A stretch of DNA of 64,000 bases from Caldicellulosiruptor diazotrophicus (GTDB lineage: Bacteria > Bacillota > Thermoanaerobacteria > Caldicellulosiruptorales > Caldicellulosiruptoraceae): assembly GCF_017347585.1 (NCBI RefSeq), contig NZ_AP024480.1, forward strand, positions 2,395,501-2,459,500, given 5' to 3'. Below, one piece after another: positions 24,301 through 38,263 of this stretch. The translations under genes were made by a program, and so were the position numbers. The notes below the pieces were generated by a model. It had not been told where the DNA came from, made no database searches, and saw nothing but the letters and a program-made list of their open reading frames with translations. Position 1 is the first letter of the stretch. Each line of letters begins with the position of its first letter.

Positions 24301-27300
24301 TAATAGTTCAGATAAAACGTGTTTGTAATTGTTTTAGTGCTTTATCAACCACATGTTTACATCCCTAATAGTTCAGATAAAACATATAAATATACCCCTC
24401 GCCCTAAAAATAAATCAAAAGTTTACATCCCTAATAGTTCAGATAAAACACAAATCTATAGATATGATACTTGCTGATTTGCCTTAGTTTACATCCCTAA
24501 TAGTTCAGATAAAACTTGCTGTGTCAGGAAGCACATATACTATAACTTTCCTGTTTACATCCCTAATAGTTCAGATAAAACCCTTTAAAACTTTTAATTG
24601 GTCAGCATTCACAATCTGGTTTACATCCCTAATAGTTCAGATAAAACTTTTTTCCCCAACTCTTTCGCTTCATCAACAGACAAGTTTACATCCCTAATAG
24701 TTCAGATAAAACCTTTTGAATGCTTGCAAAACTTTTCTATAAATTCTATGTTTACATCCCTAATAGTTCAGATAAAACCTTTCTTGCTCATTAAATCTGC
24801 TTTCAGCTCTTTCATGTTTACATCCCTAATAGTTCAGATAAAACTGAATTAACTGAAGCAGAGTATCAGGCTATATCAGCGTTTACATCCCTAATAGTTC
24901 AGATAAAACTGTTTCAAAAACATCACTCCTCTGTTCAAGAAATTCTTGTTTACATCCCTAATAGTTCAGATAAAACAATATTCGTCATACCTTGCTTTTG
25001 CTTCAGTTGCCGTGTTTACATCCCTAATAGTTCAGATAAAACTCTACTACTGCCATATACATACGAATATTTATAACTCGTTTACATCCCTAATAGTTCA
25101 GATAAAACGCTAACTTGTAATTTGCCTTGATATTGCTGTCTGCAAGTTTACATCCCTAATAGTTCAGATAAAACCTCCTTGTTCAACTAATTTTCTAAGA
25201 ACTTTTCTGAAGTTTACATCCCTAATAGTTCAGATAAAACAATTCAATCCGTCCAGGCTGTTGCTTTCGCTTGCAAGGTTTACATCCCTAATAGTTCAGA
25301 TAAAACTTGTGGTTGTTACTGCTACTCCAGTAGCGTTATTGGCGTTTACATCCCTAATAGTTCAGATAAAACTTAGGTGAAGTAAGTGTTGAAATTGCGG
25401 TACAAGATTGTTTACATCCCTAATAGTTCAGATAAAACAAACACCAATAGCTCCAATGATAATTCCTACCAACCAGTTTACATCCCTAATAGTTCAGATA
25501 AAACCCTGTTGACCCTACAAAAACAATGTGTTTTCCATATTCGTTTACATCCCTAATAGTTCAGATAAAACCTTGACAGATTCTTTGCAGCTCTGAAATA
25601 TTACGCACATGTTTACATCCCTAATAGTTCAGATAAAACACTGGTCAAGTAGATATTAGAAATGTAACAATTCAAAAGTTTACATCCCTAATAGTTCAGA
25701 TAAAACCATTGCATTGTAATAGTGCAACAAATCCACAAGTAAAGTTTACATCCCTAATAGTTCAGATAAAACATATAAAGAGGACTTTTTGATGTTGTTC
25801 CTAAAATTGTGTTTACATCCCTAATAGTTCAGATAAAACCTCATTGTAAATAACAAGCTTATAAGATAGTAGTTATTGTTTACATCCCTAATAGTTCAGA
25901 TAAAACCTTTCTTCTCAAATTTCCTATAAGCACTTCGATTTTCCGTTTACATCCCTAATAGTTCAGATAAAACATAAATACAGTTTCAAACACAATTTAT
26001 AATGGAAAAAAGTTTACATCCCTAATAGTTCAGATAAAACCATCATTTGGCATTGGCAAAGCCCAAAAATTGTAAGTGTTTACATCCCTAATAGTTCAGA
26101 TAAAACCTGGTGATAATCCTACATTTTATGTTCAAAATATGAAGTTTACATCCCTAATAGTTCAGATAAAACTTCCGTCAAAATCGGTAAAGGAATATTC
26201 CTTGGTCTTGTTTACATCCCTAATAGTTCAGATAAAACATGAGGAAAGCTAAAGAGTTAGGTTTTATTCAATAAAGGGTTTACATCCCTAATAGTTCAGA
26301 TAAAACAACTGAACCTGTCAGTACCATAGAAAACTACCAGCGTTTACATCCCTAATAGTTCAGATAAAACAGTAAACCGGTTTTTGATTGTATCAGCACA
26401 AATTAAAGTTTACATCCCTAATAGTTCAGATAAAACCTTGATGTATTTGATTGTGTCAAACAGCATGTAAAGGTTTACATCCCTAATAGTTCAGATAAAA
26501 CGTTGTACTTCTGTAGTTGATTGTTTTGATTCTTCGATGTTTACATCCCTAATAGTTCAGATAAAACGTCGATGTTGGGGTAGCGTGCTTTGAAGTCTTT
26601 TACAGTTTACATCCCTAATAGTTCAGATAAAACTTATTATTTGAACATTTTGCGGTTGATTTACATTAACGTTTACATCCCTAATAGTTCAGATAAAACT
26701 GATAAAGGAGTGATACGATGAGTTATTGGCTTGAAAGTTTACATCCCTAATAGTTCAGATAAAACTTTAGGATTTTTAGCAGCAGTAGGAATAAAAGGAT
26801 TTCGTTTACATCCCTAATAGTTCAGATAAAACTAAGGTTGTAATTTCCTAAATCAATCAGAATTTCAAAGTTTACATCCCTAATAGTTCAGATAAAACCG
26901 TAACAGATACGATGCTGCAGTATATAAAGCTTTACGTTTACATCCCTAATAGTTCAGATAAAACCTTTACTTGAAAAAGCTATAAATTTATTAATAAAAG
27001 GTTTACATCCCTAATAGTTCAGATAAAACCAAAATCTTGGCAATTACTGGAGGCAATCATGAACACGTTTACATCCCTAATAGTTCAGATAAAACTTTGA
27101 GGTTTATTTGAAAGATCTTGTCGATTCGACAAGTTTACATCCCTAATAGTTCAGATAAAACTAGCAAATACGTCAATTGATACAGCACATATAAAAACGT
27201 TTACATCCCTAATAGTTCAGATAAAACCATCTATATTGATATTATTCACACTCTCAACTTTAATGTTTACATCCCTAATAGTTCAGATAAAACAACAGCA

Positions 27301-28682
27301 AATTCCTGTATGGCTATCTTGCTAAGATTAGTTTACATCCCTAATAGTTCAGATAAAACGGCAGTTCGAGATACCAACTCAAGACAATCAAACGAGTTTA
27401 CATCCCTAATAGTTCAGATAAAACCACTTTCTGGTCCGGTGACTGGTCAGTGCCAGAAGAGTTTACATCCCTAATAGTTCAGATAAAACAAATATCAAGC
27501 AACATTTGTTCTATCTGCTGAATGATGTTTACATCCCTAATAGTTCAGATAAAACTTAGTATTATTTATATTAGTATTATTTCCGTGCCATTTGTTTACA
27601 TCCCTAATAGTTCAGATAAAACCCGATACAGCAATTGTCAAAACAAATGGTGGTTCAGGGTTTACATCCCTAATAGTTCAGATAAAACGCGGTAGCCTTT
27701 TCTACTTCATCCAGCGCTCCCCTGTGGTTTACATCCCTAATAGTTCAGATAAAACGGTTTTGGGGACACCAATAATATCAAGTATAATTTACGTTTACAT
27801 CCCTAATAGTTCAGATAAAACCCGAAAGGGATAAATATAGTTTTATTTAGCTAAAAATGGTTTACATCCCTAATAGTTCAGATAAAACAGTAATCAAAAT
27901 CAATTTGTGTATCGTACCAAATAAGTTTACATCCCTAATAGTTCAGATAAAACGTAAGTGATAATTCAATTGAGTCTTCTGCATCATACGAGTTTACATC
28001 CCTAATAGTTCAGATAAAACTAACAAACCATCAATAGCTTATAAACTTAGTTGTATCAGTTTACATCCCTAATAGTTCAGATAAAACCACTTACTCTCTG
28101 CATACCATTATATAATTCAAACACGTTTACATCCCTAATAGTTCAGATAAAACAGTTTTTGCATCTCGCAATATCATGATTTGTAAAGGTGTTTACATCC
28201 CTAATAGTTCAGATAAAACTTGTAGTAAAACTTCCTTAAGTGTATTACTTCTCGATAGTTTACATCCCTAATAGTTCAGATAAAACGTATATAACTTGTC
28301 AAAACCTGCCAATTGCCCTTTTGGTTTACATCCCTAATAGTTCAGATAAAACTCTTCACCAAGTGTTACGTAAGGCATTGAAGCACCAGTGTTTACATCC
28401 CTAATAGTTCAGATAAAACTAAATCAGTTTGTTACACCGTTTTTACTAACTTTTGAGTTTACATCCCTAATAGTTCAGATAAAACTGAACAATGAAATTG
28501 TTCAAGTGCAGCTTATTACTCCGTTTACATCCCTAATAGTTCAGATAAAACAAAACTACAGAGAAAATAAAAGAAGCTGCACAACTGCGTTTACATCCCT
28601 AATAGTTCAGATAAAACCAGTCAACAATGACGGCAGTACAACCTTTAACTTTAGTTTACATCCCTAATAGTTCAGATAAAAC
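12322..28682 (-). CRISPR. CRISPR array B: 249 repeats, 248 spacers
   Basis: The same 29-nt repeat as array A continues without a break for 16.4 kb. I count 249 repeats by hand (12322 to 28654), mean unit 65.9 bp, spacers 35-39 nt; a count error of one or two is possible. Repeats are almost invariant; exceptions are 12581 (CTAGTAG), 14952 (TTCATATAAAAC) and 16329 (ATCTCTAATAG). The right end lies beside a promoter and cas2-cas1, so transcription and acquisition are read as right to left. crRNAs can be expected to serve the adjacent I-B Cascade and possibly the III-B Cmr complex. Confidence 0.98.
18725..19116. repeat. Tandem duplication of three repeat-spacer units in array B
   Basis: The block 18725-18920 (three spacers with their repeats, 196 bp) is repeated at 18921-19116. 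The copies differ at one base: T at 18805 versus C at 19001, in the middle spacer. This is the signature of slipped replication or unequal recombination between repeats, followed by a point mutation. Confidence 0.95.
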
Positions 28683-28922
28683 CCACTAACAGTAAATGCT
28701 CTCTCATGGGTATGTGTTTATAATTATAACAAATCTAATAAGCATTCAGCAAACATAAAATGCAGCGAAGGGGTGGTTGGGATTTGTAAGAAGTTGTTAA
28801 AAAGTTTTTTGGACTTTGCAGCAAAAACAATAGAACTTATTCGAACTAATGTTTGAAACGCTGCAAAATGGTTATATCTGCATCAATTAGAGGCATTTGC
28901 TCTTAATTAAATTTTAAAACTT
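28683..28922 (-). promoter_or_regulatory. CRISPR leader with promoter, between cas2 and array B
   Basis: This 240-bp non-coding stretch sits between the first repeat (leader end) and the cas2 stop. On the minus strand a promoter is visible: TTGCTG at 28752-28747 and TATAAT at 28728-28723 with an 18-bp spacer. The predicted start, near 28716, is about 34 nt before the first repeat. The rest is AT-rich with no open frame. Position next to cas1-cas2 and promoter direction both fit a leader. Confidence 0.75.
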
Positions 28923-29186
28923 TTAAATTATTACAGAGTCATAGTTCTTTTCCTGTCCTAAAATCTTTTTGTTACATACAAGTTTGTACTCCATCTCATA
29001 AAAATACACTGAATCTTCATCTTTTTCTATAACAGATAAAAGTTCTCGTTTGCACTTTTCGAGCTTCCCAAGTGTAATTTCGCCCTCAAAAACTGAATTT
29101 TGAACCCATGTAAAGTATTTTTTTAAAATCTTTCTTACCTTGTTGACTCTCTTTTCGTTGATATCGTATGTTACTATAACAAAGAT
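28923..29186 (-). CDS. cas2: Cas2, spacer acquisition; non-standard ATC start
   Basis: Cas2 forms the dimer at the centre of the Cas1-Cas2 integrase. The minus-strand frame ending at TAA 28925-28923 translates as a complete Cas2 of 87 codons: FVIVTYDINEKRVNKVRKIL, then FTWVQNSVFEGEITLGKLEKC, ending KNYDSVII. No ATG, GTG or TTG exists at the proper start. The codon preceding FVIVTYD is ATC (29186-29184), correctly spaced 9 nt after AAGGAG, and in-frame stops TGA TAG lie just upstream. Either ATC is used, or a start mutation has made this gene poorly expressed. The last gene of the I-B operon, 92 bp after cas1. Confidence 0.85.
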   Translation of the reverse strand: MFVIVTYDINEKRVNKVRKILKKYFTWVQNSVFEGEITLGKLEKCKRELLSVIEKDEDSVYFYEMEYKLVCNKKILGQEKNYDSVII

Positions 29187-29278
29187 GTTCTATCACTCCT
29201 TCAAACAGAAAATTTGTAGCCAGATAGAAATTGCTGAATTTTAAAAATTTAAATGTCTCAATGTACATGCAAATCAAC

Positions 29279-30259
29279 TTACCACCATGCTTTGAGCGGT
29301 GAATAAACCTGATCACCTATAAAATGTTTTATCAGCTTGTAGCATTCAAGTCTTATAAATCCCTTGTAGGAAACATTTCTGTTTAATTGTCTGTGCCGAA
29401 CTGTAGTTTCAAGTTTGTTTTGAAATTCTTTTAAAAATATTTTCTTTCCTTCTTGATTTAAATAACAATAATTTAAATCTTCATCAAAATGCTCAAGCTT
29501 TAACTGATGGTTATTAAGAAGCTTGAATATCACAGTATCAACAATCAGTGGTTTAAAAATCTCAGAAATATCAAGGCTGAGGGAAAATCTCTTTTCACTT
29601 GGTTCATGTAAAAAACTTATACTAGGGTCAAGTTGAGTTTGATAAATTTGAGACAAAGTGTGACTGTAAATCAAGCTATTTCCAAACGAAATAAGAGCAT
29701 TGATAGGATTTGTAGGTGGTCTTTTTTCTCTTTTTTCCATTGAAAAATCTTCTGGAAGAAACTGATTAAATGATTGATAATATATATTGCGAATTCTACC
29801 CTCAAGCCCCATTAACTCTGTAATGTTTGATATGTTAAATCTGCCTCTTTCCCATTCATTTTCAATTGCAACTAAAAAGTCTTCAGCTTCTTTTCTTTCT
29901 CTTAAATTTCTCATCATGTGATAAACCGCTGATTCGACAAAACAGTATGCCAAGAAGATTCTCTTTTCTCTATCAAGATAATGAAGCGCTTGCCGAACAA
30001 CAACATCTCCAGATACATTTTTCTTACGGGGCAAGAAACTCCCAGTATAAAAACCATAGTAGTTATAAAAATGAAGAACAATACCATATTGAGAGATATA
30101 ATTTAGAGCTTTAGTGTTTAAGTCTACCTCCCCAAAGATGTGAATCTGCTCAACATTTTCTATATCAATTGCTTTCTTTTCATCACCCATTTCAAAATAA
30201 AGTGTGTTCTCATGCCTTCTTAGTCTCCCATTTGAAGTAATATATAAACTCTTTTGCAT
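29279..30259 (-). CDS. cas1: Cas1 integrase (type I-B)
   Basis: Cas1 is the metal-dependent integrase that inserts new spacers at the leader end. With the start at 30259 (MQKSLYITSNGRLRRHENTL) the protein has 326 residues, the normal length. The metal-site residues are in place: Glu153 in GLEGRIRNIYY, His218 in SFLHEPSEKR, and Asp230/Glu233 in LSLDISEIFKPLIVD. I prefer this ATG over one at 30286 because GGGGGT precedes it by about 10 nt and it lies just after the cas4 stop. No damage is seen. Confidence 0.95.
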   Translation of the reverse strand: MQKSLYITSNGRLRRHENTLYFEMGDEKKAIDIENVEQIHIFGEVDLNTKALNYISQYGIVLHFYNYYGFYTGSFLPRKKNVSGDVVVRQALHYLDREKRIFLAYCFVESAVYHMMRNLRERKEAEDFLVAIENEWERGRFNISNITELMGLEGRIRNIYYQSFNQFLPEDFSMEKREKRPPTNPINALISFGNSLIYSHTLSQIYQTQLDPSISFLHEPSEKRFSLSLDISEIFKPLIVDTVIFKLLNNHQLKLEHFDEDLNYCYLNQEGKKIFLKEFQNKLETTVRHRQLNRNVSYKGFIRLECYKLIKHFIGDQVYSPLKAWW

Positions 30260-30266
30260 AGCAATT

Positions 30267-30791
30267 TTACCCCCAGCAAAACTCAAAGTATGCGCACAAC
30301 CTGCAAATTTTTTGTTTTTGCGCAGGTGGCGGAATAGACTTTGTTGTAATCTCTTCTATCTCTTTTAATGCTTGCTTTACTTTTTCTTCATACTCTGGGG
30401 TAAGTTTCAGCACCTCTTTTCTTTTCTCTTTCGGATAATTGATTATTCCTTGTTTTTGAATTCCCTTTTGTTTGAGATAGTAAAGGTAGTACATAACCTG
30501 CATTGTATCAGCTTCTTTCATTTTACTGCTATATTTTACTTCTCTGATACTGCCGTCTGACATTATGTCAATTGTTATTAGATTATCAATCAAAATTTCC
30601 TTACTATTTTCTTTTGGATATGAGTATTCATGTAAAAGCCGTCCTAATAAAACTTTTTCAGATTTGTTTTCAAATGTAATATTTTTACTAAAAAGCCATA
30701 GTTTTCTTTTACAGACATAAAAATAGTTAATTTTTATAGCCTGGAACTTTAGGTCTTGAAACTCTTGAGAATTTCCCATGTCAAATTTCAC
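30267..30791 (-). CDS. cas4: Cas4 RecB-like nuclease for prespacer processing
   Basis: Cas4 trims prespacers and helps define PAM and orientation before Cas1-Cas2 integration. The 174-residue protein has the four cysteines of the iron-sulfur cluster (Cys27 in YFYVCKRKLW and Cys163, Cys166, Cys172 in ICRLCAYFEFCWG). The RecB-type nuclease motifs are also present: LLHEY, an acidic strand near IDIMSDG, REVKYSSK and the QVMYYLYYLK helix. Length and motifs are those of a stand-alone I-B Cas4. It lies 8 bp after cas3 and 7 bp before cas1. Confidence 0.93.
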   Translation of the reverse strand: MKFDMGNSQEFQDLKFQAIKINYFYVCKRKLWLFSKNITFENKSEKVLLGRLLHEYSYPKENSKEILIDNLITIDIMSDGSIREVKYSSKMKEADTMQVMYYLYYLKQKGIQKQGIINYPKEKRKEVLKLTPEYEEKVKQALKEIEEITTKSIPPPAQKQKICRLCAYFEFCWG

Positions 30792-30799
30792 TCTCTTTT

Positions 30800-33541
30800 T
30801 TAAATAATAAAACTATCTTTTTTACTCTCCTTTTTTTCAGCCCTTATTAAACCTTTTTCATTATCGTAAACAAAATTATAGCTCAAATATACACCCGAAA
30901 GCCAATGTTTGAGTCTTCTTTTCCACTTATTATCTATTTCAATTTCGGTTGTAAGTTTATTATAAACAGGTTCCAAATCTTTTAAATAAAAATGCATAAC
31001 AATATGTTTTGACAAAACATCCTTCTTAAATTGCGTAAAAAGCATTTTTTTATTTTCTCCGCTCTGTTCTATTGTTTTTATAAATTCTTGAATATCCTTT
31101 TTAAATTCTTCAAACTTATTCTTGGGAATAATTTGTACACTACAAATTTCTCTAAAAATCTCTTCTGCTTCAGATTTTTTATCCGACATCAATCCACTAT
31201 TTAATACAATAAGAGTATTGTAAAAATCCTTTAAATATCTGCCATCCTTTTTCATTGTAGAGTAAAATAAAGTTACCAAAATGTACTTATCATATTCTGA
31301 CAGTTCAATTTCTACCTGGTCTAATTTTGCTAACCAATCATGACTGAAAAGAAGAGAATTATAGACACTTTCTTTATTCTCACCTTTACCCTTTTTACCT
31401 TTCTTTTTATTATTTTGTTGAACAAGAATTAAGTCTGCAAACTCCATTCTGAAAAACTCTTCAACACCATTATCGGCAAATTCTTGTTGAAAAGTTTTAT
31501 CTAACAATCCTCCCAAATTAGATTGATTATCCCTTACTTTCCACAACCAAGCAAGTGAAAGGTTAATAAGTTCCTTTGTATAAACTCTCTGCCCACCTGA
31601 TTGTAAATTCTCGTTATTAAATACAAGTACGTTTATATTCGGCTCATTTTGGAATTCTTTTTCAAAAGCTCTAAAAGGTTTATCTAAATTGAATTTCTCA
31701 TTGTTGCTTTTATTGACAACTTCATTATTTTGATAAATATATCTTCTCAAAATTCTCCCCATTCTTTGAACTAAGCAGTCAAGAGGACATATCTCTGTAT
31801 ACAAAACATCAGCATCAATGTCAAGAGAAGCCTCAACTACTTGGGTTGCAACAAGTATTTTGCCAACATTCTCGGTTTTAGGATTCTTAAACTCGCTGTT
31901 TATATAATCAAATTCTTTATTTTCTCTATCTTTTAACGTATATCTGGAATGAATAAGAAAAATTCTTTTTTTCAACTGTTCATTTGCATTATTTTTCAAT
32001 TTATCATACACACTCTGTGCAAAACCCACAGTATTCAATATTACAAGTATTCTTTTGTTATTTTTTGCTTTTTGTAAAATTTCTCTAACCATTTCATCAG
32101 GAATCTCAAATTGCTCATTCTTGGTTTTAATTAAATTTAATTTTATCTTATGTTTGTAGAGTTTACTGAATGCATCTTTTTCTTTCTCATAAATATTTAT
32201 AGAATTCACATTCTCATAAAAGTCAGGAATTACATCTTTAAAATAATCTATTACAAACTTTGGCATAGTAGCAGTCATTAAAAGAAATTTCCCACCCATT
32301 TTGTGTATCCATTCTAAAAATTTTACAATTATAGCACATGCTTTTGGTGAATATGCCTGTATCTCATCAATTGCAATTCGTGAATAAGAAAGAGAAACAA
32401 ATACCCTTTCAAATCCAGGTGGTCTCAATGCATATGGGAAAAACTGGTCTCCAGTTGAGACTATTACAGGATACGACAGTTGTTTTGAAAGTTCATACAA
32501 CTTTATTGAGCCAGTTTCATCTAAATTTTTGTCTAACAAATATACCTCAGCGTCTGAATGTAAAAGACCTGTCTTGTTACACCCAAATGCATTTTTAGCT
32601 CTTTCAAAAGTGTTATTCACTGAGGCTCTTAGTGGTAAAGTATAAAAAAGCTTTTCTCCTGATGACCATAAAAAAGCAAACTCTGTTTTGCCATAACCTG
32701 TTGGTGCTATTAATATAGTGTTTTTTGCTGAACACTTCTCTAATTCTTTAAATTGCCAAGCATTATCTCCAATTCTACTTGAAATAGCTTTAATTATATA
32801 TTCTCTTTCTGGTGCATTAATTTCAACATTTTCTAACTCTTCTTCCGCTCCCTCTTCTTCGCACCACGAAGCAAAATGGTCACAGCGTTGCAAAACCCCC
32901 GATATAAAAATCCATTCTTTTTTGACTTCACCCCTGAGTGGATGGTAGTCAAATTTGTATGGAGGCACTGCCAAATTTACAAAAAGTCTGTGGTTTAAAA
33001 TAGCTTTCAGCCACGTCATATTGATATCGATTAATTCCTTATATTCATCAAAACCAGAAAGTTTCTCAAACTCTTTAACAAGATTTTCTTTTAATTTTTC
33101 TTTCCATTCGTAGATTACTTTTTCACAAACTTGTTTTAACTGCTTATTTTCTAAAGAGATTATTTCATCAAAATTATCTCTCCAATGATGATATGCAATT
33201 GCTGATATTATATAATTTAAATATTTTTCACTATTTAGCTTTTCCTTTAGTTTGTCTATATTAATCCAAAAAACAGAAAATAAAGAATGTGGAATTTCAT
33301 AAACTACATCCCTTGGATAATATCCAATATTACCTAAAGTTTTTATTTGAAAAGATGGTAACACTTTCCCTAAATCATGAAAAAATATTGCAATTTCAAC
33401 CGCATTCAATATAAATTGATTATCTGAAAATTTCTTTTTAAAAAACTCAAAAACCTTCAGCACATCAGAGACATGATGTGCTAAAGTAACTATTTTGTTA
33501 TTATTTTTCTCATCCACTGACTTTGCCCAAATTTCACTCAT
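30800..33541 (-). CDS. cas3: Cas3 HD nuclease-helicase
   Basis: Cas3 is recruited by Cascade to unwind and degrade the non-target strand. The N-terminal HD domain shows TLAHHVSDVL (about residue 20) and IFFHDLGKVLPSF (about residue 60). The SF2 helicase follows with Walker A TGYGKTEFAF, the box IDEIQAYSP, MTATMPKF, QVVEASLDID and QRMGRILRR. At 913 residues it is a full single-chain Cas3. I place the start at ATG 33541 (MSEIWAKSVDE), which overlaps the cas5 stop by 8 bp; the frame is open 28 codons further upstream but inside cas5. Confidence 0.95.
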   Translation of the reverse strand: MSEIWAKSVDEKNNNKIVTLAHHVSDVLKVFEFFKKKFSDNQFILNAVEIAIFFHDLGKVLPSFQIKTLGNIGYYPRDVVYEIPHSLFSVFWINIDKLKEKLNSEKYLNYIISAIAYHHWRDNFDEIISLENKQLKQVCEKVIYEWKEKLKENLVKEFEKLSGFDEYKELIDINMTWLKAILNHRLFVNLAVPPYKFDYHPLRGEVKKEWIFISGVLQRCDHFASWCEEEGAEEELENVEINAPEREYIIKAISSRIGDNAWQFKELEKCSAKNTILIAPTGYGKTEFAFLWSSGEKLFYTLPLRASVNNTFERAKNAFGCNKTGLLHSDAEVYLLDKNLDETGSIKLYELSKQLSYPVIVSTGDQFFPYALRPPGFERVFVSLSYSRIAIDEIQAYSPKACAIIVKFLEWIHKMGGKFLLMTATMPKFVIDYFKDVIPDFYENVNSINIYEKEKDAFSKLYKHKIKLNLIKTKNEQFEIPDEMVREILQKAKNNKRILVILNTVGFAQSVYDKLKNNANEQLKKRIFLIHSRYTLKDRENKEFDYINSEFKNPKTENVGKILVATQVVEASLDIDADVLYTEICPLDCLVQRMGRILRRYIYQNNEVVNKSNNEKFNLDKPFRAFEKEFQNEPNINVLVFNNENLQSGGQRVYTKELINLSLAWLWKVRDNQSNLGGLLDKTFQQEFADNGVEEFFRMEFADLILVQQNNKKKGKKGKGENKESVYNSLLFSHDWLAKLDQVEIELSEYDKYILVTLFYSTMKKDGRYLKDFYNTLIVLNSGLMSDKKSEAEEIFREICSVQIIPKNKFEEFKKDIQEFIKTIEQSGENKKMLFTQFKKDVLSKHIVMHFYLKDLEPVYNKLTTEIEIDNKWKRRLKHWLSGVYLSYNFVYDNEKGLIRAEKKESKKDSFII

Positions 33542-34361
33542 CTTTATCCTCCTCAAGGTCGGTAAAAAATACAGGGATATTGTCTTCTGTATCAAAATAA
33601 GCGACAACATCACCAAAATCTCCATTATTTAGTTTTGCTTTTACATACCTAAAGTTTCTAACACCGTTCTGAATTTTATAAAAAGAGGTCACATTGTAAG
33701 CTAAACCATTAACTTTTTTAAAATCAAAATTGCCATTAATTATAAAAACTTTTTCAGGTACCCAAAAAAAATTTTTATAGTTGCCATTGATTTTATGAAT
33801 TATTAAATCAATATACCTTATCTCTTCAATCAATATCCAATCCTCTGCTCTGCCTAAATGCATAACAGAAGTTTTATTGATGGGATTTTCAAAACTACTT
33901 TTTACAATTTCCAAAAAATCCTTGTCATAATGATATAAGTAAATAAAAATTCTCACATTATTTAAAACATCAGTCACACAAGGCATTTGTCCACCTATGT
34001 GTTCAATGTGTCCACCAACATTTCGATTTGTTACTGAACCAAACCTTCCTATATGACTTTCTGCCTTCAGGTTTCTCAACCAAAAGTATTCTTCAACTTT
34101 GGTTTCAAAGTTTCCACAAACTCCTATTTTAATTTGTTTCAATTTGTGATACAAACATCTGCAGTTGTTACTTACACAAGGTTCCTCTTGCCCTGGGATA
34201 TTTTTAATCCCAAGAACATTTGATATCAAACCTAACACTGTTGAATAAGGTGGAATAGGGTATGTATGTCTTCTTCGATAACTAAATGGTACCCTAAAAT
34301 GCGCTTGCGGCTGATATATTTTTATTTTCAAAGCATAAATAGAATTTTTAATTTCTTTCAT
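33534..34361 (-). CDS. cas5: Cas5, type I-B Cascade subunit
   Basis: Cas5 is the RAMP subunit that binds the crRNA 5' handle in Cascade and anchors Cas8. The N-terminal signature QPQAHFRVPFSYRRRHTYPI followed by PPYSTVLGLISNVLGI is typical of Cas5 of the I-B Tneap/Cas5t group. The 275-residue length is normal. It follows cas7 after 17 bp with a purine-rich ribosome site and overlaps cas3 by 8 bp, so the order cas7-cas5-cas3 is tightly coupled. Confidence 0.92.
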   Translation of the reverse strand: MKEIKNSIYALKIKIYQPQAHFRVPFSYRRRHTYPIPPYSTVLGLISNVLGIKNIPGQEEPCVSNNCRCLYHKLKQIKIGVCGNFETKVEEYFWLRNLKAESHIGRFGSVTNRNVGGHIEHIGGQMPCVTDVLNNVRIFIYLYHYDKDFLEIVKSSFENPINKTSVMHLGRAEDWILIEEIRYIDLIIHKINGNYKNFFWVPEKVFIINGNFDFKKVNGLAYNVTSFYKIQNGVRNFRYVKAKLNNGDFGDVVAYFDTEDNIPVFFTDLEEDKDE

Positions 34362-34378
34362 TTCTCTTCCCTTCCTGA

Positions 34379-35527
<1,149 letters not shown>

Positions 35528-36061
35528 TTAACCCTCCTTATTTTTTTCTATTCCTTCACCTAACAAACCGCTTAAAAATGAATATACCATTACTTTAAAG
35601 CTTTCGACAGAATACTTTGGATTAAAAGCTTTAACAAAATTTTTACCAACTTCTTCTTGTGCATTTACAAATTCTCTCAGAATAATATGAAAAACTTCTT
35701 CTCTCTTCCCTAACCTTGTTAATTCAAGAATTCTAAAAGTTACTGCTTTGGGAACTTTCTTGTCTTTATCAAAAAACCTCTCATAAACTTTGCTTTTTCT
35801 TAAACTTTCTCCATACCATCTTAGCCATTCACAAAGCTCACTAATATTCTGTAAAGAAAATTCCTTATACAAACTCCAAAGCTTAATTTTATCTTCCCCT
35901 TTTGCATTATTAGCAGCCCATTCCAATATTTTTTCCAGCTCAAATCCAAGTTTCTTATATGAGCTAACTGCTTGCGAAAAAGCCTTAAATTCAATTTGAT
36001 TTTGCAGTATTGCCTCTTCTAAAGTTTTCTTAATTTCATCAAAATTAAATTTCTCATTCAT
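35528..36061 (-). CDS. Helical protein between cas8 and cas7, candidate stand-alone small subunit (Cas11-like)
   Basis: I do not recognise this 177-residue protein from its sequence. It reads as nearly all helix, with charged amphipathic stretches such as FDEIKKTLEEAILQNQIEFK and LCEWLRWYGESLRKSKVYER, no cysteine cluster and no nuclease motif. It starts 1 bp after the cas8 stop and ends 3 bp before cas7, so it belongs to the operon. In many I-B systems the Cascade small subunit is made from an internal start within cas8. Here Cas8 is short (415 residues), and a separate helical gene follows immediately, which makes a free-standing Cas11 equivalent the simplest reading. This is inference from position and composition. 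Confidence 0.6.
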   Translation of the reverse strand: MNEKFNFDEIKKTLEEAILQNQIEFKAFSQAVSSYKKLGFELEKILEWAANNAKGEDKIKLWSLYKEFSLQNISELCEWLRWYGESLRKSKVYERFFDKDKKVPKAVTFRILELTRLGKREEVFHIILREFVNAQEEVGKNFVKAFNPKYSVESFKVMVYSFLSGLLGEGIEKNKEG

Positions 36062-36062
36062 A

Positions 36063-37310
36063 TCAGAGCCTCCCTTTTTGTTTTTCCATTATCAATAAAT
36101 AAAGTTCAAAAAGTTTTTGAGATATTTTTATTAAATCACTCTTTTCTTTGACCAATTGAAAATAATGAGCAATAAACTCATCATCTTCATCTGATTTGTC
36201 TTTTTTTGTTTTGTTACTTTCTTCTGACAGTTTTTGCAAGGCTATTTTAAAAACCTTTTCTCCAATTTCCATAATTCTTTCATAATTTTGACTTAATACT
36301 AAATTTAAAATACTTGTTTCCCCGATTTCAGTTAGTATGCTTGAAATTTTGCGATTTAAAAGTAATGAAATTACCTCATGAGGTAAGCTATAAAACTCTA
36401 AGTTATAATCTACTTTCTTTTTATGCCTAACCTTTAATTTACTGACCACTTCAATATTCATCATTGTCCATTTTCCAAGCTGAATATTTACTTTTAATGC
36501 CATCTCCATTACAGACATTCCCAATAACTTTCTTGCCTCGGATGTTTTTACTTTTTCGTTAATAGCTTTGACATACTTATTCAAATACCACATAATTAGA
36601 AATGATGGAGCATTTATAAAAATTTCTGAACCGTCTTCAAGTTGAGTAACCGCTAAATGATGATGAATAATAAAATATGAACATATCGGACAGATTCTTA
36701 ACGATGCATTATTATTCCAGAATGAGTTTGGAAATTCTCCTGCTGACGGACCTAATAAAGAAGAATGCATCAAGTCAAATTTAAAAAGCCTTTTTTCTAA
36801 TTTGCTGGTTTCATCTGGTTCTATGGCTCTTTCATTTCCGCATAAATCACATCTATAAGTAACTTTATTATTAGCCATAGAAAATAAATTTAGTAAAAAA
36901 ATTATAAATTCTTTTCTATCTCCTTGTTGCACTAAGTTCTGGTAGGGCATGTTTTTCGAAAATAATTTATTAAAAGCTCTCACAAGTTTATATCCAAATT
37001 CACCCATCTCATTGTAATATTCTTCTAACTTCTCTCTATTGCTATTCCCTTTTTTATCTTTGTTTTCTAACCACTCTTCAATATCTTCATTTTCAGTTAA
37101 ATACTCTACATAGCAAACCAAAGATTTAGGTATATTTTCTTTACCTACTTTGACTGGTTCAAAAATTGTTTTATCTATACTTATGCTACCATCTTCATTT
37201 AACCAATTTTCAATTACATCCTCACCTAATTTCCATGAAATAACATTCAAAAATCCAATCACAGAAGCATTATAAAGCCAATTTCCTGGATACAATGTGA
37301 GCTTATCCAT
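36063..37310 (-). CDS. cas8: Cas8 (Cst1 type), Cascade large subunit
   Basis: Cas8 recognises the PAM and starts target unwinding. The N-terminus LTLYPGNWLYNASVIGFLNV is characteristic of the Cst1/Cas8b1 group. A treble-clef-like zinc site is formed by CDLCGNERAIE and, some 60 residues later, RICPICSYFIIHHH. The C-terminal third is helical with an acidic lysine-rich linker (KTKKDKSDEDDEF). I use ATG 37310; a GTG at 37319 overlapping the cas6 stop is the alternative. At 415 residues it is short for this group, consistent with a separate small-subunit gene downstream. Confidence 0.88.
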   Translation of the reverse strand: MDKLTLYPGNWLYNASVIGFLNVISWKLGEDVIENWLNEDGSISIDKTIFEPVKVGKENIPKSLVCYVEYLTENEDIEEWLENKDKKGNSNREKLEEYYNEMGEFGYKLVRAFNKLFSKNMPYQNLVQQGDRKEFIIFLLNLFSMANNKVTYRCDLCGNERAIEPDETSKLEKRLFKFDLMHSSLLGPSAGEFPNSFWNNNASLRICPICSYFIIHHHLAVTQLEDGSEIFINAPSFLIMWYLNKYVKAINEKVKTSEARKLLGMSVMEMALKVNIQLGKWTMMNIEVVSKLKVRHKKKVDYNLEFYSLPHEVISLLLNRKISSILTEIGETSILNLVLSQNYERIMEIGEKVFKIALQKLSEESNKTKKDKSDEDDEFIAHYFQLVKEKSDLIKISQKLFELYLLIMEKQKGRL

Positions 37311-37315
37311 TTTTC

Positions 37316-38101
37316 TCACCTCACCACCTCAACAAACCCAAACCCTTGACCTCTGCGAAATCCTATTCCGTTTTGATACAGTTCTTTTAAATCTTCCGGG
37401 TCTCCTGATAGTTCAAACAAACCAGAAAATCCTGTCAAAAACATTATATCTTTGTTAGTTTTCTCAACAAACTCAGAAACTCTGTGTTTTACAACTGCCT
37501 TTTGAATACTTATTGGTTTAAAAGTTAACCGTTTTTGCAGTCCTTTGTTTTGTCCTCTCAAAAGACGAATATTTCTTATCTCAAAATCAACAACATTGTT
37601 GAAAATCTCTTCAAATCCTTCATCATAAGGCAAAACTGGCACCTTTTTGTTGCCTTCTTTTTTCTCAATTAAAATTGGGGCAAATGTTTTGAAGGTCATT
37701 TTTGAGTCAAACTTTTCTGGTTCCCTTACCAAATACGTTTGCTTAAGCGCAATCTTGCAGCTGTCTGTTAAAGGGTATGGATAGAGACGATTGTTAAGTA
37801 GGCTATTATACATGTTTACAAAAAACTCATAGTCAGATGTGGAAATATTTAGCATAATATCCCCTCTGAAAGAAACTGTATCATCTTGAAAGTTCATATT
37901 GGGAAGATTAACAGAAAAAACAAAGGGTTTCTGCCATTTATTCTTTTTTTCACCCCACCAGTAAATTCTATTAAAATAGTTTTTATCATATAGAGAAAGG
38001 GCTCTTTTTAAAAAACTCATAAAAATAGTTCTGTAGTAAACAGGAAGACTATGAACCTCACTTTGTTTTCCAAGCACTTCAAAAATGAATTTTGCTCTCA
38101 C
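37316..38101 (-). CDS. cas6: Cas6 pre-crRNA endoribonuclease
   Basis: Cas6 cuts the repeat RNA 8 nt before the spacer to release crRNAs. The RAMP fold is indicated by FIFEVLGKQSEVHSLPVYYR at the N-terminus and the C-terminal glycine-rich loop GIGFRRGQGFGFVEVV. A histidine in EVHSLPVYYR is a candidate general acid/base but is not proven. I choose GTG 38101, preceded by AGGTGG at a good distance, over an in-frame TTG two codons upstream. First gene of the I-B operon. No other cas6 is visible, so it probably processes transcripts of both arrays. Confidence 0.92.
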   Translation of the reverse strand: MRAKFIFEVLGKQSEVHSLPVYYRTIFMSFLKRALSLYDKNYFNRIYWWGEKKNKWQKPFVFSVNLPNMNFQDDTVSFRGDIMLNISTSDYEFFVNMYNSLLNNRLYPYPLTDSCKIALKQTYLVREPEKFDSKMTFKTFAPILIEKKEGNKKVPVLPYDEGFEEIFNNVVDFEIRNIRLLRGQNKGLQKRLTFKPISIQKAVVKHRVSEFVEKTNKDIMFLTGFSGLFELSGDPEDLKELYQNGIGFRRGQGFGFVEVVR

Positions 38102-38263
38102 GTGCAATATCCCACCTTTTTTAATATTCTACTCAGTTTGTAATTAAATAATATATTTCGACATTAATTACTAAAATCCTTCTTTATTTTTGAAAAATTT
38201 TAAAATTTTTAGATGCATAAAAGATAGTTTAAAATTGCTCTGACTTTTTAAATAAAAATTTTT

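What the first reader, a model, noticed from the sequence alone, without database searches (positions are those of the whole stretch)
35528..36061. Unrecognised helical gene between cas8 and cas7: a possible stand-alone I-B small subunit
In known I-B Cascades the small subunit is commonly produced by internal translation of cas8. Here a 177-residue helical protein is encoded separately, 1 bp after a short cas8 and 3 bp before cas7. Cas8 plus this protein add up to about the size of a longer Cas8. A gene split that frees the small subunit would be a neat evolutionary intermediate toward I-A and III arrangements.
Basis: inference. Interest (0 to 1): 0.6.

Follow-up and report, generated by a model that had tools for sequence, protein, structure and literature searches.

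The report
Separate Cas11b gene in I-B CRISPR
The overlooked gene between cas8 and cas7 encodes the small subunit (Cas11) of this type I-B CRISPR complex as a gene of its own, whereas related systems hide the same domain in the tail of cas8; the family is already catalogued, but no paper that I found has studied this separate-gene form.

Summary
A 177-aa, all-helical protein lies 1 bp after a short cas8b and 3 bp before cas7, inside a complete I-B operon with its CRISPR array. It is not unrecognised: PADLOC calls it Cas11b, "Small subunit of some of I-B systems" (E 1.3e-67), though Pfam and NCBIfam have no model for it. Its C-terminal 75-95 residues are homologous to the C-terminal domain of fused Cas8b proteins (hhalign 99.6% and 98.6%). 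The short Cas8b resembles solved I-B Cas8 chains up to about residue 350, with no sign of that domain.

I found 44 split loci across at least 16 named phyla, all keeping the gene. Fused relatives usually carry a Shine-Dalgarno and start codon at the homologous junction (13/16 versus 18/181 background windows), so both designs make free Cas11b. The split form is best read as one old fission, with one in-frame fused member (L112) among it. It is not an intermediate toward I-A or III.

Split and fused effector cassettes replace each other between the same cas6, cas4/cas1 and CRISPR repeats within one genus: a ready natural test. The small-subunit role here is inferred; Cas11's known fold was not recovered by structure search.

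The parts
35528..36061 (-). cas11b, stand-alone small subunit, 177 aa: N-terminal helical hairpin (about 1-95) plus conserved core (about 98-171)
   Evidence: PADLOC PDLC01190 E 1.3e-67, PDLC01193 E 5e-64; alignment; model pLDDT 88.9
36063..37319 (-). short cas8b, 418 aa, CXXC-CXXC type, without the C-terminal Cas11 domain
   Evidence: TIGR01908 26.0 bits, cutoff 19.4; PDLC01204 E 2e-130; VIA-align Z 10.0 to 8h67_L, model 3-346
34379..35524 (-). cas7 (Cst2/DevR), 381 aa
   Evidence: TIGR02585 E 2e-43; PF01905
33534..34361 (-). cas5b, 275 aa
   Evidence: TIGR01895 E 1e-35
30800..33625 (-). cas3 (HD + helicase), 941 aa
   Evidence: TIGR01587 and TIGR01596
37316..38107 (-). cas6, 263 aa; overlaps the cas8b start by 4 bases; shared with fused-cassette relatives
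   Evidence: TIGR01877; 69-89% identity to fused-cassette loci of the genus
30267..30791 (-). cas4, shared with fused-cassette relatives
   Evidence: TIGR00372; 79-86% identity
29279..30286 (-). cas1, shared with fused-cassette relatives
   Evidence: TIGR03641; 87-95% identity
26522..28680 (.). CRISPR array, repeat GTTTACATCCCTAATAGTTCAGATAAAAC about every 66 bp; same repeat in fused-cassette genome G005
   Evidence: only 26500-29300 was scanned; the array may begin earlier; the high end is approximate
36062..36076 (-). Shine-Dalgarno GGGAGG at the end of cas8b, then TGA-T-ATG: coupled start of cas11b

Best explanation
The gene encodes Cas11b, the small 'belly' subunit of this type I-B Cascade, as a separate cistron translated right after a Cas8b that has lost its own C-terminal Cas11 domain. 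Inferred mechanism: several free Cas11b copies line the crRNA-Cas7 filament, join Cas8b to it and hold the non-target strand of the R-loop. Because this Cas8b has no Cas11-like tail, the position next to Cas8b that the tail fills in fused I-B systems should be filled by one more free Cas11b, as I would expect from type I-A. Shown here: homology, gene order, co-conservation, constraint and the domain-lacking Cas8b. Inferred: assembly, stoichiometry and R-loop role, taken from published I-B Cascades.
For: PADLOC Cas11b E 1.3e-67 and 5e-64; the fused Cas8b model PDLC02050 matches the window's cas8 (profile 168-348) and this protein (356-492) one after the other. Profile comparison with fused C-terminal domains: 99.6%, E 5e-25, and 98.6%, E 9e-16. 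44 split loci in at least 16 named phyla, none with the short cas8b, a complete cas8-cas7 interval and no cas11b (one frame-broken fused locus, L083, taken out). Fused Cas8b genes carry a Shine-Dalgarno and start just before the homologous core: 13/16 versus 18/181 background windows, and 14/15 in the other cassette type (no background run for that set). The window's cas8b has no internal start with a Shine-Dalgarno match of 5 or more. Cas8b model: best matches are I-B Cas8 8h67_L Z 10.0 (rmsd 5.8, 233 aligned), 8fcj_I 9.6 (8.6, 288), 8ip0_J 9.2 (6.5, 255) and I-A 7tr6_C 6.9 (7.2, 270), unrelated rows at 5.4 and below. dN/dS 0.10-0.15. Literature: Cas8b tail plus three Cas11b form the belly in Synechocystis I-B (PMC11096372); Cas8b1 does not co-purify without Cas11 in T. 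maritima (PMC13199841).
Against: No direct structural match of the Cas11b model to a solved Cas11: hits are unrelated helical bundles below Z 6, most of them to the N-terminal hairpin; the core was barely tested. No sequence match to PDB Cas11 chains. The N-terminal ~95 residues have no counterpart in the fused domain and their role is unknown. No experiment on this clade was found.
Confidence: 0.9

Rival explanations
1. Split is ancestral in this part of I-B and the fused Bacillota clade (and the other fused cassettes) arose by fusion, so the window shows the original rather than a derived state.
For: One fused, in-frame member (L112) groups with split loci with its junction ribosome site intact, so fusion does occur. 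The root of the ingroup is poorly resolved.
Against: Both neighbouring lineages (Bacillota fused clade and the outgroup cassettes) are fused, and holding all split rows (with L112 and L114) as one clade raises the likelihood by 8.1 (p-AU 0.67), so one fission is the cheaper history. The root was not tested with I-A or other subtypes.
Confidence: 0.2
2. An accessory Cas protein of another function, recruited between cas8 and cas7.
For: Long N-terminal helical hairpin absent from fused domains; fold search finds no Cas11.
Against: The conserved part is the very domain found at the end of fused Cas8b, and Cas8b lacks it exactly when this gene is present. Split loci with a 98-110 aa protein lacking the hairpin exist (L104, L120, L122).
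Confidence: 0.05
3. A recent frameshift or assembly error splitting a normal cas8b.
For: Such cases exist: L083 is broken in the middle of Cas8, and L045 is a broken fused gene.
Against: The junction is conserved across many phyla with its own ribosome site and start; purifying selection acts on the frame; the protein is longer than the fused domain.
Confidence: 0.01

Closest known systems
PADLOC Cas11b (PDLC01190, PDLC01193), 'Small subunit of some of I-B systems'
   Same: Same family over nearly full length; same genomic setting
   Different: Nothing that would set it apart; the window's protein is an ordinary member
Cas11b made by internal translation of cas8b (Synechocystis, Haloferax, T. 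maritima)
   Same: Helical small subunit positioned as the Cas8b C-terminal domain; free copies expected
   Different: Own gene; Cas8b carries no copy; about 95 extra N-terminal residues relative to the fused domains aligned here; direct sequence comparison with these three proteins was not made
Type I-A Cas11a/Csa5 and type I-E Cse2
   Same: Separate gene beside a large subunit
   Different: No sequence match found; belongs to another lineage, so resemblance in layout only
Fused Cas8b (PDLC02050; TIGR01908 Cas8b1/Cst1), including the alternative cassette in the same genus
   Same: Cas8b part and Cas11 core in the same order
   Different: One gene with internal Shine-Dalgarno and start; cas7/5/3 of the genus's fused cassettes only 29-40% identical to the window's

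Membership tests
Cas11b, type I-B small subunit (PADLOC) | Full-length match to the family profile | tested here: met
   PDLC01190 1-144/144, E 1.3e-67; PDLC01193 1-161/164, E 5e-64
Cas11b, type I-B small subunit (PADLOC) | Homology to the C-terminal domain of Cas8b | tested here: met
   hhalign 99.6% and 98.6%
Cas11 superfamily | Small, mostly alpha-helical protein | tested here: met
   eight helices in the model, pLDDT 88.9
Cas11 superfamily | Structural match to solved Cas11/Cmr5/Csa5/Cse2 | tested here: inconclusive
   No such chain among matches; the N-terminal hairpin dominates the hits
Cas11 superfamily | Present in Cascade in several copies, in the belly | not testable with these tools
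   needs purification or cryo-EM
Type I-B effector operon | cas8b, cas7, cas5, cas3, cas6 with cas4-cas1-cas2 and array | tested here: met
Type I-A effector (Cas8a + Cas11a) | I-A type Cas8/Cas7/Cas5 families | tested here: not met
   Cas7 and Cas5 fall in I-B/TNEAP models, Cas1 in I-B

The most novel reading that the evidence does not exclude
Type I-B comprises two interchangeable effector designs, one with a Cas8b that carries its own Cas11 domain and one with a tail-less Cas8b in which a free, N-terminally extended Cas11b takes that place. Whole effector cassettes of the two designs have been exchanged in nature between the same cas6, cas4-cas1 and CRISPR repeats, so both read the same crRNAs.
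Probability: 0.45. Interest if true: 0.55.

Novelty: new member of a known kind. Interest (0 to 1): 0.42.

Why it matters
A 2026 paper still states that type I-B makes its small subunit by internal translation and lists only I-A and I-E as having a separate gene (PMC13199841). A broad I-B branch does it differently. It gives a system in which Cas8 and Cas11 can be removed independently without recoding an internal start, and a tail-less Cas8b that tests whether the Cas8 tail is needed. Cassette pairs on identical repeats (this genome against G005, G009 against G002) allow a side-by-side test with the same crRNA.

Tried and rejected
Foldseek and VIA-align of the Cas11b model against the PDB: only unrelated helical bundles (14-3-3 and others), Z below 6, mostly to the N-terminal hairpin; inconclusive. 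Profile searches of PDB sequences with Cas11b, the fused tails and Cas8b: only designed or unrelated proteins, or nothing. Scan of genome contigs with the single protein: no relatives; a Cas7 alignment worked. L083 looked like an independent split but is a break in mid-Cas8 (both parts align to fused L086, at 275-477 and 1-277). L045 is a broken fused gene. A weak Pfam match to Cmr2_hel_dom2 (E 1.9) and NCBIfam DNA polymerase III delta' (E 0.014) was treated as chance. An AU test of the split loci without L112 did not finish and was not repeated. Literature searches found no description of a stand-alone I-B cas11; only openly licensed papers are held.

Full report
On the minus strand the operon reads cas6 (38107-37316), cas8b (37319-36063, 418 aa), the 177-aa ORF (36061-35528), cas7 (35524-34379), cas5 (34361-33534), cas3 (33625-30800), cas4, cas1 and cas2, then a CRISPR array with repeat GTTTACATCCCTAATAGTTCAGATAAAAC. 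The ORF is under purifying selection: dN/dS is 0.10-0.15 against two close relatives, lower than cas8 (0.30-0.37) and cas7 (0.18) in the same pairs.

What it is. Pfam and NCBIfam have no credible match, so an annotation pipeline resting on them would probably leave it hypothetical. PADLOC has it as Cas11b, 'Small subunit of some of I-B systems', E 1.3e-67, and as a second Cas11b profile, E 5e-64. The fused Cas8b model PDLC02050 matches the window's cas8 at profile positions 168-348 and this ORF at 356-492, one after the other. A 42-sequence alignment of the stand-alone family matches the tail of fused Cas8b of Bacillota (hhalign 99.6%, E 5e-25, columns 100-171) and the tail of the other fused cassette type (98.6%, E 9e-16, columns 81-175). 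The conserved core reads roughly YRxLExxRxGxRxxVxxxxLRxF...LxxAFxPxYsxxxFxxxxySFLsG.

What Cas8b lacks. The Cas11 profile has no hit in any split Cas8b. The AlphaFold model of the window's Cas8b (pLDDT 90.4) has as its best VIA-align matches I-B Cas8 chains: 8h67_L, Z 10.0, rmsd 5.8, 233 aligned, model 3-346 to chain 7-357; 8fcj_I, Z 9.6, rmsd 8.6, 288 aligned; 8ip0_J, Z 9.2, rmsd 6.5, 255 aligned; then I-A 7tr6_C, Z 6.9, rmsd 7.2, 270 aligned. Unrelated chains follow at 5.4 and below. Foldseek alone did not rank these at the top. Middling Z values can be chance, but four Cascade chains in the first four places are unlikely to be.

How wide. A Cas7 scan of GTDB species gave 54 loci. Together with whole-genome searches I annotated 92 stretches including the window, some of them the same place twice. 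Forty-four carry the split arrangement (45 counted, less L083, which is a mid-gene break of a fused cas8b), in at least 16 named phyla; many are metagenome bins, so host names are only as good as the bins. No locus has the short cas8b, a complete cas8-cas7 interval and no cas11b. In a sample of 398 genomes of the window's phylum, stand-alone genes occur only in its own genus and in one genome of another family, G114. Many of the hosts are thermophilic lineages by name; I did not test this against the sampling.

Two designs, one product. In the nearest fused set (15 Bacillota or Thermotogales genes and L112), 13 of 16 genes have a start codon with a Shine-Dalgarno match of at least five bases within 35 codons before the Cas11 core, against 18 of 181 background windows; at seven bases the counts are 9 of 16 and 2 of 181. 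In the second fused type, 14 of 15 genes have such a start 103-123 codons from the end. That is the internal-translation design known from Synechocystis (PMC11096372), Haloferax (PMC11899642) and T. maritima (PMC13199841). The window's cas8b has none; instead its last codons carry AAAGGGAGG and the next gene starts after TGA-T. The stand-alone protein is longer: 159-191 aa in most loci, against about 90-105 aa after the internal start in the nearest fused clade, through an N-terminal helical hairpin (model helices 25-52 and 56-89). Three split loci have only the short form, 98-110 aa (L104, L120, L122), so the hairpin is not required for the arrangement.

History. Trees of Cas7+Cas5 and of Cas7+Cas5+Cas3 group most split loci, with the Bacillota fused clade next to them and other fused cassettes as outgroup; deep forks are open. 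Holding all split rows with L112 and L114 together gives a better likelihood by 8.1 (p-AU 0.67). One fission of a fused cas8b at its internal ribosome site is therefore the cheapest history, though the root was not tested with other subtypes. L112, whose nearest kin L122 is split, reads Cas8b into Cas11b in frame with the ribosome site and ATG kept, so the two states appear to interconvert. Nothing links this to the origin of I-A or III.

Cassette exchange. Within the genus, cas6, cas4, cas1 and the CRISPR repeat are shared while cas8-cas7-cas5-cas3 differ in kind. Window (split) against G005 (fused): cas6 89, cas4 86, cas1 95% and the same repeat, but cas7 38, cas5 35, cas3 37%. G009 (split) against G002 (fused): cas6 94, cas4 95, cas1 97% and the same repeat, but cas7 37%. 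Two genomes (G001, G008) hold both designs, and in G001 the split cassette has a broken cas7. I read this as block replacement of the effector between conserved flanks; exact breakpoints were not mapped.

Mechanism. In the Synechocystis I-B complex the Cas8b tail and three Cas11b copies form the belly that supports the non-target strand (PMC11096372); in T. maritima Cas8b1 did not co-purify without Cas11 (PMC13199841). I infer the same role here, with one more free Cas11b where the Cas8b tail would sit. The homology and gene logic are shown; copy number and position are not. The weak point is that no structural search tied the model to a solved Cas11, and that part remains inconclusive.

Verdict. 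A real, ordinary member of a catalogued but apparently unstudied Cas11b family. The more interesting point is the natural exchange of the two effector designs on one crRNA system.

Noticed in passing
window 29279-38107; compare L035/L041 and window/L044: Effector cassettes (cas8-cas7-cas5-cas3, split or fused type) have replaced each other between conserved cas6 and cas4-cas1 with identical CRISPR repeats.
   Followed up: partly
L112:1-792: Cas8b-Cas11b fused in frame in a locus that groups with split loci, with Shine-Dalgarno and ATG kept at the junction: fission and fusion appear reversible.
   Followed up: partly
window about 28915-29185 (-); also L041 after cas1: cas2 is readable (IFVIVTYDINEKRVNK...) but has no ATG, GTG or TTG at its expected start, so ORF lists miss it.
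   Followed up: no
L037:9797-11229: In G001 the split cassette lies about 12 kb from a complete fused cassette and its cas7 is broken into two ORFs, suggesting decay after replacement.
   Followed up: no
L078 and L079 (G114): A genome of another family in the phylum carries both cassette types about 40 kb apart, with low cas6 identity to the window (39-40%) but cas7 64% in the split one: likely horizontal transfer of the effector.
   Followed up: no
L122, L128, L130, L136, L137, L139, L142, L145: Cas7 open frames of 477-572 aa, about 100-190 aa longer than usual; the extra part was not examined.
   Followed up: no
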